Positions 21,105-26,729 of a stretch of DNA of 36,073 nucleotides are shown one piece after another. A program made the translations under genes and the position numbers. The notes under the pieces are model-generated. The model had not been told where the DNA came from. It worked only from the letters and a program-made list of their open reading frames with translations, and did not search any database. The stretch is from an uncultured bacterium. GTDB taxonomy: Bacteria; Patescibacteriota; Gracilibacteria; Absconditabacterales; Absconditicoccaceae. Each line of letters begins with the position of its first letter. Positions within the stretch are counted from its first letter, which is position 1. The stretch covers positions 1-36,073 of the forward strand of contig CAMJIH010000005.1 in the NCBI GenBank assembly GCA_946405785.1. Direction: 5' to 3'.

Positions 21105-21332
21105 ATGTTTACAATCACTGATGCAACAAAAAAACAAGTACATATGGCTATTGTAAAACCACTTAGACAATTCGCTGAGGAACGAATACTCGACCTTAGT
21201 GAGAGGGTATCCTTTTTGGACTTCTGTGATTCTATCAAAGTGAGAGGATCACTAGTAGTAGATGTTACCTCTTTTGAAGATTATTGGAGGAGGTATATTC
21301 ATAAAAAGGAACAAATCCCTAAGAAAAAATAA
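21105..21332 (+). CDS. Small hypothetical protein (75 aa)
   Basis: I chose ATG 21105 over an in-frame TTG at 21075 that would add ten hydrophobic residues. The protein opens MFTITDATKKQVHMAIVKPL and is amphipathic and helix-rich, with a basic tail (HKKEQIPKKK). It contains no TGA; its one glycine is GGA. It lies 36 nt after the peroxidase gene on the same strand and is followed by a strong terminator, so the two probably share a transcript. Family not recognised. Confidence 0.6.
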   Translation: MFTITDATKKQVHMAIVKPLRQFAEERILDLSERVSFLDFCDSIKVRGSLVVDVTSFEDYWRRYIHKKEQIPKKK

Positions 21333-21351
21333 TGTTATTTTAACATTTTTG

Positions 21352-21382
21352 GCTGGATTTATATAAAAATCCAGCTTTTTTG
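21352..21382 (+). terminator. Terminator after the 75-aa gene
   Basis: GCTGGATTT / AAATCCAGC: a 9-bp perfect stem with a 6-nt loop, followed by a T-run. Confidence 0.85.
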
Positions 21383-21492
21383 GTTAAAAAATTTTTGGCT
21401 TTTGAACTAATGCTTTTTGTTATAAAAAATACTATATCATTTTTTTAAGAAAAAGTGCTAACTGAGAATTAGAGGATTTTTGTGTTATATTC

Positions 21493-21520
21493 TTGTTTTT
21501 TTTCTATGCAATGTTATAGT
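21493..21520 (+). promoter_or_regulatory. Putative promoter of the structured RNA
   Basis: TTGTTT (21493-21498), 16 nt, TATAGT (21515-21520), giving a start near 21527. Confidence 0.45.
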
Positions 21521-21526
21521 GTAGTC

Positions 21527-21876
21527 GTAAATAAAAATTACATATAAAAACAAATTAAAAAAATCTCGTTATGGATCAGGAGTTCTGGGCATGAAGAGAT
21601 GATAAAATGACTAGCTTATCCTAATGCGAAAATTTATCACAAACTTGAACCTGTGTTTTTGTTAAATTGTTGTTGGTTATTTTATGTGCAGAAATTGGTA
21701 ATTTGTTGTAGAAGGCTAAATATGAATCGGTTTGAGTCCTTGGTTAATGTATAAGGTTTTTTACTATCGGTAGTCATCAAGTTGTTACTGATACTAATAA
21801 GCCTTCTGTATTCTTAAGGGCTGCGGACAGGTTCAAGTGAACTCTGACCAGAAGTTTCTCTTCCGGTCTTTTTTTT
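21527..21876 (+). ncRNA. Probable free-standing structured RNA of unknown class
   Basis: The stretch between two small genes has no good reading frame but has its own promoter and terminator. The outer pairing joins 21573-21585 to 21839-21849 (11 bp, two bulges) and encloses about 250 nt. Inside it, AGAAGGCT (21710-21717) pairs perfectly with AGCCTTCT (21800-21807). That arm holds CCTT/AAGG (21738-21741, 21753-21756) and ATCGGT/ACTGAT (21766-21771, 21787-21792). It lacks the conserved sequences of tmRNA, RNase P RNA, 6S and SRP RNA as I know them. It could be a diverged member of one of these or a new class. Confidence 0.5.
21846..21876 (+). terminator. Terminator of the structured RNA
   Basis: GACC-A-GAAG, TTTCT loop, CTTC-C-GGTC, then eight T. 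Its first four bases also form part of the outer stem of the RNA, so stem and terminator compete. Confidence 0.75.
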
Positions 21877-21939
21877 AACTTGAAATTTTCTTATAATATA
21901 ATAACATAATTTTATTCTTTATAAAAATTTCTATTATCA

Positions 21940-22140
21940 ATGGCTCAAGAAGAAACAAAGAAAGAAATTAGTAAAAATTTAGATAATCCAATTGTTGAGG
22001 CAACAAAGAAAACTGATTTGAGTGTTGCTATGAATTCTGCTCCTGAAAAAAAAGAGTTACAACCAGATCAAATTGCTCCTTGGTTATCTAAGTATGAAAA
22101 TAAGTTAATCAAAGAGAGGTACTGAGATAATAATCAATAA
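21940..22140 (+). CDS. Small acidic-basic hypothetical protein (66 aa)
   Basis: It starts MAQEETKKEISKNLDN and ends RYGDNNQ with a single TGA glycine, so the standard reading is only five residues shorter. It is hydrophilic and probably mostly disordered until a short PWLSKYENKLIKERY helix. It lies 45 nt upstream of tex on the same strand and may be co-transcribed. Family not recognised. Confidence 0.55.
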
Positions 22141-22185: not shown

Positions 22186-24450
22186 ATGTCATCATTAATT
22201 AATCAAATTAGGGAGAAGACTTGAATGGAAACTCTTGTTATTACCAATATTATTTCATTATTAGATCAATGAAATACTGTTCCATTTATTGCTCGTTATC
22301 GTAAAGAAATGACTAAATGAGCAACTGATGAACAGCTTCGTGATTTCTATGAAATCTATATGTATACTAAAAACTTGGAGGCAAGAAAACAAGATGTTAT
22401 ACGTTTGATTGATGAGAAATGATTATTAACTCCTGAATTAAAAGATCAGATTTTGAATGCTGAAACCTTGGCTAGAGTAGAAGATTTATATAGACCATTT
22501 AAAGAAAAGAAAAATACTAAGGCCACTATTGCTAAGGCAAAATGATTGGAACCTTTAGCTAAGATTCTTGCAAAAGCTCAGCTTTCAAAAGAAGATTTTG
22601 AGAAGAAAGCAGAGGAGTTTGTTAAGGATACTTGAGATAAGAAAACTAGTGTTTGAAGTGTTGAAGAAGCTATTCAATGAGCTAAAGATATTGTTGCTGA
22701 AGATGTTTCTGATCATGCAGATTTAAGAGCTGATTTGAAATCATATGAGGAAAAATATGCTGTTCTTGAAACTAAACCAACTAAAACTTTTGAAGAAAAT
22801 TGAGTATATAAGATTTATAAAGAATATAGTAAAGTTATGGCTGATATGCCTTCTTATGCTTATTTAGCTGTTTCAAGAGCTGAAAAAGAAAAACAATTGT
22901 CTATTAGAATGATATTTTCAAAAGAGAAAATTGATAAGTATTCAAAAAGATATTTTATGCCTGAAAATGCTGATACTTCTTCTGTTTATTTACAAGAGGC
23001 TATTGATGATTGATTAGAAAGATTATTATTACCTTCATTAGAGAGAGAAATAAGAGCTGATAAGAAAAGATGGTCTGATGAAGCTGCTATTAAAGTATTT
23101 GGTGAGAATTTGAAACAATTATTATTAACACCTCCTGTTCAATGATTAACTGTGCTTTGATTTGATCCTGCTTTTAGAACTTGATGTAAGTTGGCTGTTG
23201 TTGATAAGACTTGAAAGTTTTTAGAAAAGTCTGTTATCTATCCAACTGAACCACAGAATAAGATTGAAGAGGCACAACAAACATTATTAGAATTAGTTAA
23301 GAAATATAATATTGATTTAATAGTTCTTTGAAATGGTACAGCATCCAGAGAATCTGAACAAGTTGTTGCTGATTTTATTAAGAAGAATAAATTGAAGGTC
23401 CAATATTTGATTACTTCTGAAGCATGAGCTTCTGTTTATTCTGCTTCTGAATTAGCTCAGTCTGAATATCCTAATTTGGATGTGACTATTAGATGAGCTA
23501 TTAGTATTGCACATAGAGTTCAAGATCCTTTGGCTGAATTAACAAAAATTGATCCTAAAGCTATTTGAGTTTGACAGTATCAGCATGATGTTGATCAAAA
23601 AATATTAAAAGAAAAATTGAATGAAAAAGTTGAAGATATTGTAAACTCTGTTTGAGTTGATGTTAATACTGCTAGTTATACATTATTACAATATATTGCA
23701 GGTTTAACTACTGCTATAGCTAAAAATATTGTTGCTTATAGAGATGAAAATTGAAGTTTTACTGATAAAAAACAAATTAAAAAAGTTAAATGATTATGAC
23801 CTAAAGCATATGAGCAGGCTATTTGATTCTTAAGAATTAAGTGAGGTAATGAAGTGCTTGATTCTACTGGAATTCATCCTGATCATTATAAACAAGTTTA
23901 TGATTTTATTGAAAATGAATTAAAAATTAAAAAGAAAGATTTAGTTTTGCCACTAAAATTAAGAGAATATTCTGAAGATGAAATAGAGGAGTTCTCTAAT
24001 AATTATTGATTATGATATGAAACAATGGAGGATTGTATTAAGGAGCTTCAAAGACCTTGATTAGATCCTAGAGAAGAATTAGAAAAACCTTGTTTTAAGT
24101 CTGATGTATTAGATATTAAGGATGTTCAAGTTTGAATGAAACTTCAATGAGTAATTAGAAACATTACTGATTTCTGAGCTTTTGTTGATGTTTGATTACA
24201 TAATGATTGATTGGTACATAAGTCTCAAATGGCAGATTTTTACGTGCAAAATCCTATCGATGTTGTCAAGGTTTGACAACAAGTGACTGTAAGAGTTCTA
24301 GATATTGATTTAGAAAAAGAAAGATTATCTCTTTCTATGAAATGAGAAGAAAATCCAGTTAACAAGGAATATAAAGAAAAGACTCCTAGGAAGGAAAGAA
24401 AAGAGGAGTCTTCGTTATTTACATTAGGTGGTAATATTACTTTTTCTTAG
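22186..24450 (+). CDS. tex: Tex-family S1 RNA-binding protein
   Basis: This is a 754-aa cytoplasmic RNA-binding protein of the Tex/Spt6 family, linked to transcription and RNA turnover. It has an N-terminal helical domain (IARYRKEMT near residue 38), a YqgF/RNase H-like domain from about 318 (VLGFDPAFRTGCKLAVVD), tandem helix-hairpin-helix motifs at about 493-550 (KVKGLGPKAYEQAIGFLRI), and a C-terminal S1 domain from about 650 (GVIRNITDFGAFVDVG). Length and order are normal. TGA codes many glycines, including those in the HhH and S1 motifs. The stop is 2 nt from that of the convergent 758-aa gene, with no terminator between them. Confidence 0.93.
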
Positions 24451-24452
24451 TG

Positions 24453-26729
24453 CTATCATAAGTTAGATTCTGTAGAAATTTCCATCGATTCTATTGCTTC
24501 AAGTGAGGCCATTAGTTCAATATCTGCTTCTTCACTTTCTCTTTCATGTTTCTCTTCTGCTAATTCTTGGATTTTTTTTCATTGTTCTTGCGCTAGTCTT
24601 TTTTCAGGATTCATTTTTTCATAGTTTTCAGAAAATTCTTTTGAGAAGTTGTCTAGTTTGATATTTTCTTTTTTAGACCATTGATCTATGAATGATGAGA
24701 AATCATCGATATTAATTTTGAACTCTGGATCATTTGGATCTCTTCTTTCAAAGAGTTTGAAGAAGTTAATTATTGAAGTTTCCCAATTTTCGTAATTCTC
24801 TTGTTCTTTTCCATGTTTAAGATTTAGTAGATTTTCTCTTAGAACTGGGTCTGTAATTTTATTTATTTCTTCTACTGGTTTTCATAACAATCATTCAAGT
24901 TTTTTAAGTGCTCATTTGAATTCTACCAACTCGCTTGATGTAGATTTTTCTGTTGTATTGTCTACTAGTAAAAGAACTTTTCTTATTGGAGTTAATCATG
25001 TTTCAGTTTGTTCGTTAATTTTTCTTTTATATTCTGTTCTTCCAATAAGTGCTGAATCAAAGGCTTGTGCTGCAAGATTTTTCTCTGTAAAACGTCACAT
25101 ACGGGTTTTTATTTCATCGTTTTCAGGAAATGATTCTTTTATTTTGTTGTTTATATAATCTGTTACATTTCTTTTGAAATCGTTTGCATCGCTTGATCCT
25201 TCTAGTATTTTTTTAAAGATATCTTGATCCATATTTTGTAGATTACTTACAATATCTTTTGTGCTAGGCATTTTGATTTTTAAATCTGATCTTGGATGTT
25301 TTCATTCTCAATCATATATTTGATATTTGTCATTTTCTATGTGTAAAACATCATCACAGCAGATTTTTGTTTGTCAGTCTTTTGTATCATAATAGAATGA
25401 AAGTGGTTTACCATCAATAACTCATTCGATGCGCATTGTTGAATCCTGCATTGTTATGAATTCATCTTTCCCTTTTCAGAATCTGTCTTGTAATGTGTCT
25501 TTATTGAATCATGTATATGAGTCTAAGTATCTTAGTATTCATGTTAGTGGTGCTTGTGCTGCAGATCATTTGATATAATCTGTAATCCATCAGTTTAGAC
25601 TATCTAATTTTGTTGTGTAGTAATTAATATCATCTTGTGTTAGGTCAGAGTAGTCTTCATCAAATATTTTTTTGCTTATTTCTTGGAATTTTTCATCTTT
25701 TGGAAAATTAACGTCATTTTTATAGATTAGTTCCATTTTTTTGTAAGGTGCTAATGTTGATTTTAATGATTCTAGGTTGCTTGTATCTATATTTTCTTTT
25801 CAAAAGTATGATGTATTTCATAGTTTAGAAATTTCAGGGTCAGTATCTTTAAATTTTTTTAGATCTGGATTGGCTTCGAATGTTGCTGTATTTGCTGTTA
25901 ATGGAAGTCATTTAGTTGTTTCTGTTCTAATTCATAGTGTGTTTTCTAAGTTTTTTAGGTTACTTAAGAAGTCTCTTGTTTCTGGTGTGTGGTCATTTTC
26001 TCATAGTTCGTAGATTTTGTCTCTTGATATGGTATATTGGATATATTCCTCTTCGTTAACATTATTTTCTGCTAGTTTTTTCTTTGTATCTTCTGGTAAT
26101 GATGATTTTTTTTGTTCTACTTCTTGAGATGTTACTTCTTTATATTTTGATGCTAGTTTTTCGTGTGATTCTTGGGTTTTTGTAAGTGCTTCATTTATTC
26201 CCTTGAACATTTCGGTGGCGAATTTTCATAATCATGTTCAAGCTCAGATTGTATATTCTCATGTTATATCTGTGGCAATTTCTTTGGTTATTCATATTCA
26301 TGAAACTCATCAAATAGCATTTACGATTTTCCCTGTGCTTATTGTCTTGTCTTTTGAATTTATTGCAGCATTTTTTAAAATATTAAATCATTTAAAAAAA
26401 TTTTTTTGAACGTTTGTATAATTTGTTTCTGTTTCGTTTGTTGTTGTATTTTCATTATTGGGGTCAATTTCATTGTTATCTAAATCATTTATTTCATTTT
26501 CAATTTCTTTTATTCATTCGTCAATATTTTCTGAAAATTTTATTCTTATTTTTAAATCTTCTAAAATATTTTTTATTTTTGTTTCACCTTCATTTTTTAA
26601 TTTTTTTTCAATGCATTTTTTTATTCTATTATTTTGTTCTTCATTTAATTTTAAATCTCAGAAAACTTTTTCAATTTCGTTGTCTATTGAAAATAATTCT
26701 GTATTTCCTAGATTCTGAGATTCTGGCAT
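24453..26729 (-). CDS. Large protein of unknown function (758 aa)
   Basis: It is continuous only with TGA = Gly and ends in TAG. The N-terminal 115 residues are charged and helical. A Gly/Ile/Ala-rich segment (about 135-175, with repeated TGA glycines: NAIGGVSGIG, GAGTGLG) could insert in or cross a membrane. A long acidic middle follows, then a strand-rich block near 440-500 (RIEGVIDGKPLSFYYD, ICCDDVLHI, YQIYDGEG). The C-terminal 150 residues are a Glu/Lys-rich coiled-coil-like helix. There is no signal peptide. I do not recognise the family. It heads a group of minus-strand lineage-specific genes (24453-28056). Confidence 0.65.

What the first reader, a model, noticed from the sequence alone, without database searches (positions are those of the whole stretch)
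21527..21876. Candidate new structured RNA with promoter, closing stem and terminator
There is no good reading frame over more than 300 nt, but an 11-bp end-closing stem, an 8-bp perfect internal stem with two nested hairpins, a plausible promoter and a strong terminator whose 5' arm overlaps the closing stem. It does not carry the conserved blocks of tmRNA, RNase P, 6S or SRP RNA.
Basis: partly seen in the sequence, partly recalled or inferred. Interest (0 to 1): 0.6.

Follow-up and report, generated by a model that had tools for sequence, protein, structure and literature searches.

The report
New genus-specific structured RNA gene
In a tiny, uncultured bacterium that reads the TGA stop codon as glycine there is a roughly 340-letter stretch that makes no protein but is kept, with matching changes in its paired letters, in the other two known species of its genus, so it is very probably a real RNA gene of unknown job that no RNA catalogue lists.

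Summary
The window is from a code-25 (TGA=Gly) Gracilibacteria-type genome. Between a glutathione peroxidase region and an ORF66-tex unit lies a conserved block (about 21430-21905). It holds a promoter-like region, a structured RNA (about 21527-21876) and a terminator on the + strand. No Rfam family matches. The RNA is present, single-copy and beside ORF66-tex, in both other sampled species of the genus (88% and 71% identity). It was not detected in 350 other genomes of the class. RNase P and tmRNA genes lie elsewhere in those two relatives. A consensus structure of 79 pairs keeps 97.4% of its cells paired and has 11 pairs changed on both sides (0 of 500 shuffles reach this; slid controls give at most 2). 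Its 11-bp closing stem is only partly kept, and a local hairpin using the same bases covaries better. The strongest long-range helix is a 12-bp one at 21643-21654/21827-21838. Best reading: a stand-alone structured noncoding RNA restricted to one genus, with an unknown molecular role. A leader of ORF66-tex is the main rival.

The parts
21427..21526 (+). Conserved upstream (promoter) region; likely -35 TTGTTT 21493-21498, 16-nt spacer, -10 TATAGT 21515-21520 with TG at 21512-21513
   Evidence: Conservation rises sharply at about 21427. The block has no convincing fold (-5.4 kcal/mol, covariation term unfavourable). The hexamers were read by eye and are kept in G002; in G001 they read TTGTAT-16-TATGAT. 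Not called by the consensus scan.
21527..21876 (+). Structured noncoding RNA gene, about 340-350 nt (transcript ends inferred)
   Evidence: 88% and 71% identity in the two other species of the genus. Indels of 1, 2 and 4 nt, mostly not multiples of 3. 11 pairs changed on both sides.
21564..21599 (+). 5' hairpin H1/H2: 21564-21567/21596-21599 and 21570-21579/21585-21593, loop GAGUU 21580-21584
   Evidence: H2: 3 of 8 pairs changed on both sides, 100% of cells paired
21600..21639 (+). Hairpin H3: 21600-21606/21633-21639, with a large, strongly conserved loop
   Evidence: 95% of cells paired but almost invariant, so the pairing is not tested by covariation. The 3' half (21627-21646) is identical in all three species.
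21643..21838 (+). Long-range helix H5: ACUUGAACCUGU 21643-21654 with ACAGGUUCAAGU 21827-21838, closing the 3' domain
   Evidence: Longest inverted repeat of the RNA, 12 bp in G000 and 13 in G002. U-A to C-G in G001; read by eye, G001 pairs ACUUGAACCC-GAA with UUC-G-GGGUUCAAGU, which adds a U-A to A-U change.
21713..21733 (+). Small hairpin H6: 21713-21717/21729-21733
   Evidence: 3 of 5 pairs changed on both sides, 93% of cells paired
21735..21822 (+). Long hairpin H7+H8: 21735-21742/21815-21822 and 21746-21773/21785-21812, with near-invariant AATAAGCCTTCTGTATTC.TAAGGGCTGC on the 3' side
   Evidence: 33 pairs, 2 changed on both sides, most invariant
21846..21876 (+). Intrinsic terminator H9: 21846-21854/21860-21868, then 8 T
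   Evidence: 2 of 8 pairs changed on both sides, U-tract kept in all three species
21875..21902 (+). Promoter-like site TTAACT-16-TATAAT between the RNA and ORF66
   Evidence: 10 of 12 consensus matches; the stretch 21867-21906 is conserved in all three species. The scan expects 3.5 such sites by chance, so conservation is the main support.
21940..22140 (+). ORF66, small conserved protein of unknown function, directly downstream
   Evidence: 81% and 66% identity in G002 and G001, 37-43% in G005, G016 and G023; no Pfam family
22186..24450 (+). tex, transcription accessory protein (code 25)
   Evidence: Pfam Tex_YqgF, Tex_N, S1; next to RNA-ORF66 in all three species

Best explanation
This is a stand-alone gene for a structured noncoding RNA of about 340 nt, confined, as far as can be detected, to one genus of code-25 Gracilibacteria-type bacteria. 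A sigma-70-type promoter starts it near 21527 and an intrinsic terminator ends it near 21876; ORF66 and tex then appear to have their own promoter. The RNA folds into 5' hairpins (H1/H2, H3), a 12-bp long-range helix (H5) that closes a 3' domain with a small hairpin (H6) and a long hairpin (H7/H8), and the terminator. Shown: conservation, covariation, strand (many G-U pairs and a U-tract on the + strand), absence from Rfam, synteny. Inferred: transcription, transcript ends, independence from ORF66. Most likely mode of action (inferred, low confidence): a trans-acting RNA bound by protein, because conservation sits both in helices and in unpaired blocks (the H3 loop, CUUAAGGGCUGC) and it is single-copy in every sampled species of the genus, as housekeeping or global regulatory RNAs are.
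For: The whole 350 nt aligns in both other genomes of the genus. Conservation drops sharply on the 5' side at about 21427; the stretch before it is not alignable. A covariance model finds only these three loci in 353 genomes of the class. Structure: 97.4% of cells paired, 11 pairs with changes on both sides, 0 of 500 shuffles as high, slid controls 0-2. Alignment fold z -6.3, 0 of 300 column shuffles as low. Single-sequence z -3.7, -2.4 and -3.4 in the three species. Indels are mostly 1, 2 or 4 nt, so not coding. The terminator is kept with compensatory changes. Identity between G001 and G002 is 67.7%, against 77% for RNase P and 90% for tmRNA in the same pair, so it evolves somewhat faster than RNase P.
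Against: Only three sequences exist, so covariation rests essentially on one divergent sequence (G001). The column-shuffle z is not strand-specific (- strand z -7.9). Single-sequence minimum-energy folds differ from the consensus, which lies 23-54 kcal/mol above the minimum in each sequence. The promoter is weak. No expression data. No homologue outside the genus, so no functional context.
Confidence: 0.66

Rival explanations
1. Cis-regulatory leader (attenuator or riboswitch-like) of the ORF66-tex unit. The region is the 5' leader of one transcript, and the terminator is conditional: 21839-21849 can pair either with 21573-21585 (antiterminator) or within the terminator hairpin.
For: RNA-ORF66-tex order is kept in all three species although the gene upstream of the RNA differs in G001. 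The loop GAGUU of H2 can pair with AACUC at 21840-21844, and in G001 GUGUU can pair with AAC(C)AU, both read by eye.
Against: ORF66 in three other genomes (two other genera) and tex in about ten other genera lack the RNA upstream. A conserved promoter-like site follows the terminator. The full closing stem (antiterminator) is not kept in G001. The 3' domain between the stems is larger and more conserved than most attenuators need (own knowledge).
Confidence: 0.2
2. A lineage-specific replacement of, or strongly diverged, 6S RNA: a closing helix (H5), a large asymmetric bubble and a long terminal hairpin (H7/H8) could mimic an open promoter and bind RNA polymerase.
For: No 6S match was found in any of the three genomes of the genus, while two sister genera (G003, G006) and one other family (G038) have matches at 41-44 bits, just under the 46.4 cut-off. 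Stem-bubble-stem layout of the 3' domain.
Against: About 340 nt against 144-156 nt for the matches in relatives. No match of the 6S model at E up to 10 in this region. The bubble has about 80 nt on one side and about 4 on the other. The sequence is unlike the G006 and G003 6S candidates. G006's 6S candidate has different neighbours.
Confidence: 0.05
3. Diverged copy of another housekeeping RNA (RNase P, tmRNA or SRP RNA).
For: Length fits RNase P or tmRNA. G000 itself lacks an RNase P match and a full-length tmRNA match, probably because it is only 77% complete.
Against: G001 and G002 carry both this RNA and separate, full-length RNase P and tmRNA matches. SRP RNA models and a domain IV motif match nothing in the genus and no Ffh M domain (PF02978) is found in 13 class genomes, against 14 of 14 controls.
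Confidence: 0.02
4. No RNA function: a conserved non-coding DNA element, or remnant of a decayed gene or mobile element, whose inverted repeats fold by chance.
For: Inverted repeats are symmetric, so the - strand also scores. Only three sequences.
Against: Covariation with slid and shuffled controls, G-U pairs that would be A-C mismatches on the other strand, a conserved terminator, one copy per genome.
Confidence: 0.07

Closest known systems
Orphan candidate structured RNAs found by comparative genomics (e.g. PMC2864571; human-microbiome screen, PMC8040213)
   Same: Intergenic, conserved, covarying, no known function
   Different: Confined to a genus of code-25 bacteria. PMC8040213's main text does not mention Gracilibacteria or Patescibacteria; I could not compare sequences with its tables, so an unnamed listing there is not excluded.
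6S RNA (RF00013)
   Same: Closing stem, bubble and terminal stem in the 3' domain; stand-alone gene
   Different: Twice as long; extra 5' hairpins; very asymmetric bubble; no model match
RNase P RNA (RF00010) and tmRNA (RF00023)
   Same: Size class, multi-domain fold, single copy
   Different: Both genes are present separately in G001 and G002; no model match here
Transcription-attenuating leaders (riboswitch-like)
   Same: Possible alternative pairing that overlaps the terminator; next to a conserved downstream gene
   Different: Alternative stem not fully conserved; own downstream promoter-like site; RNA absent where ORF66 or tex occur in other genera

Membership tests
Any Rfam 15 family | Covariance-model score at or above the family's gathering threshold | tested here: not met
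   0 matches in the whole window; the best sub-threshold matches at 21300-22000 are chance-level
Bacterial RNase P RNA | Match to RF00010, and the genome's only copy | tested here: not met
   No match here; separate copies in G001 and G002
tmRNA | tRNA-like ends and tag reading frame; match to RF00023 or ARAGORN | tested here: not met
   ARAGORN finds none in the window; separate copies in G001 and G002
SRP RNA | Domain IV motif and match to RF00169 or RF01854 | tested here: not met
   no Ffh M domain either
6S RNA | Match to RF00013 | tested here: not met
   No match in this region at E up to 10, none in the genus
6S RNA | Binds RNA polymerase holoenzyme and templates a product RNA | not testable with these tools
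   Needs biochemistry
Independent structured ncRNA gene | Compensatory changes in conserved helices across species | tested here: met
   11 of 79 pairs changed on both sides, 0 of 500 shuffles; only three sequences
Independent structured ncRNA gene | Own promoter and terminator | tested here: inconclusive
   Terminator conserved; promoter read by eye, conserved but not called by the scan
Independent structured ncRNA gene | Discrete transcript | not testable with these tools
   No RNA-seq
Cis-regulatory leader of ORF66-tex | Accompanies its downstream gene across lineages | tested here: not met
   Kept only within the genus; ORF66 and tex in other genera lack it
Cis-regulatory leader of ORF66-tex | Mutually exclusive antiterminator and terminator, both conserved | tested here: inconclusive
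   Terminator conserved; antiterminator complete in G000 and G002 only

The most novel reading that the evidence does not exclude
A previously undescribed housekeeping-type RNA of a code-25 Gracilibacteria lineage, such as a structurally unrelated replacement for 6S RNA (not detected in this genus), making it a global regulator that arose or diverged beyond recognition within one genus.
Probability: 0.06. Interest if true: 0.7.

Novelty: new member of a known kind. Interest (0 to 1): 0.38.

Why it matters
Little seems to be recorded about noncoding RNAs of these reduced, code-25 bacteria: a text search of the held papers gave nothing relevant. If confirmed, this is a new RNA family with a testable structure model and clear boundaries. 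It also shows that large structured RNAs can be confined to a single genus. Without a function, its importance stays moderate.

Tried and rejected
First three-way alignment used the wrong strand for two loci and was discarded. Known RNAs: Rfam at gathering and at permissive thresholds, ARAGORN, RNase P, tmRNA, SRP and 6S in relatives. Wider homologues: blastn in 59 genomes, covariance model in 353 class genomes and again with laxer filters in 36. The weak hits (17-28 bits) that could be inspected lack the invariant blocks and look like chance; G030's 27.8-bit hit did not reappear in that search. Core-motif pattern in viral contigs (0) and genome contigs (two records, apparently the same two relatives); phage records (none). 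Unfiltered model search upstream of tex and ORF66 in sister genera (chance-level only). The upstream conserved block as part of the RNA: rejected, no convincing fold. Coding: rejected by ORFs and indel lengths. One search was a useless look-up with a placeholder id; one search was a malformed input; one search was a report that did not fit the schema.

Full report
Setting. The window reads sensibly only with TGA as glycine (code 25): Tex at 22186-24450 has 35 in-frame TGA and matches the Pfam Tex domains. The window is contig C5 of a 0.99-Mb, 77%-complete genome. Two other genomes of the genus are held (G001, 99% complete; G002, 90%).

Checking the observation. 21527-21876 holds no ORF of 60 aa or more in either code. 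The + strand folds at -87.4 kcal/mol, better than all 100 shuffles (z -3.70); the - strand gives z -2.24.

Homologues. The whole element aligns in G002 (88%) and G001 (71%). Strand-corrected alignment A2 shows conserved blocks separated by variable loops. Conservation begins abruptly near 21427 and runs through the terminator to about 21906. The 100 nt before 21527 are conserved but do not fold convincingly, which fits a promoter region. Indels are mostly 1, 2 or 4 nt, which argues against a conserved reading frame. A covariance model (R1) finds these three loci with 231-262 bits and nothing credible in the other 350 genomes of the class, nor with laxer filters in 36 relatives, nor unfiltered around tex and ORF66 of sister genera. 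Its core motif occurs in no viral contig, and in genome contigs only in what look like the same two relatives (contig lengths agree).

Structure. RNAalifold on the three sequences, without a poly-A/poly-U stem, gives 79 pairs in 9 helices: 97.4% of cells paired and 11 pairs changed on both sides. No shuffle of 500 reaches either value, and sliding partners by 1-3 columns drops pairing to 36-44% and double changes to 0-2. Support is best for H2 (3 pairs), H6 (3), H8 (2), the terminator (2) and H5 (1). By sight H5 in G001 reads ACUUGAACCC-GAA/UUC-G-GGGUUCAAGU, which adds a second change. H3, H7 and most of H8 are nearly invariant, so they are conserved but not tested. Alignment folding beats all 300 column shuffles (z -6.3), but so does the reverse strand. 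The strand therefore rests on G-U pairs, the U-tract and the promoter.

What it is not. No Rfam family matches. G001 and G002 have separate RNase P and tmRNA genes. SRP RNA is not detected in 13-15 class genomes by two models, a domain IV motif is absent from the genus, and the RNA-binding domain of Ffh is also not detected while all 14 controls have it, so this RNA is unlikely to be an SRP RNA. 6S is not detected in the genus but weakly in three relatives; those are 144-156 nt and unlike this RNA.

How it probably works. The independent terminator, a conserved promoter-like site between terminator and ORF66 (21875-21902) and the lack of the RNA near ORF66 or tex in other genera favour a stand-alone gene. 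The retained order RNA-ORF66-tex within the genus despite a changed upstream gene, and the overlap of terminator and closing stem, keep the leader model alive at about 20%. The molecular target is not shown; a protein-bound trans-acting RNA is my best guess.

Novelty. It is a new candidate RNA family of a familiar sort (orphan, lineage-restricted structured ncRNA). The evidence depends on three sequences, one of them informative; more sequences and expression data are the need.

Noticed in passing
relatives G000-G008 and G036-G039: No SRP RNA (small or large model) and no Ffh M domain (PF02978) in 13 genomes of the class, some 99-100% complete, while all 14 control genomes have PF02978. The class may lack a recognisable signal recognition particle.
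   Followed up: partly
21940-22140: ORF66: short conserved protein without a Pfam family, found in at least three genera of the family (37-81% identity).
   Followed up: partly
tex in relatives: In-frame TGA number in tex ranges from 2 (G020) to 39 (G001) among genomes of one family, suggesting very different use of the reassigned codon.
   Followed up: no
21351-21384: A second strong intrinsic terminator (GGCTGGATTT...AAATCCAGC then TTTTTT) follows the upstream 85-aa ORF and separates it from the RNA gene.
   Followed up: no
G003, G006, G038: 6S RNA candidates just below the Rfam cut-off in some genera of the class; none found in this genus.
   Followed up: partly
24453-26729 (- strand): Large protein of unknown function next to tex; a similar-looking protein also sits beside tex in G001 (L060:231-1445).
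   Followed up: no
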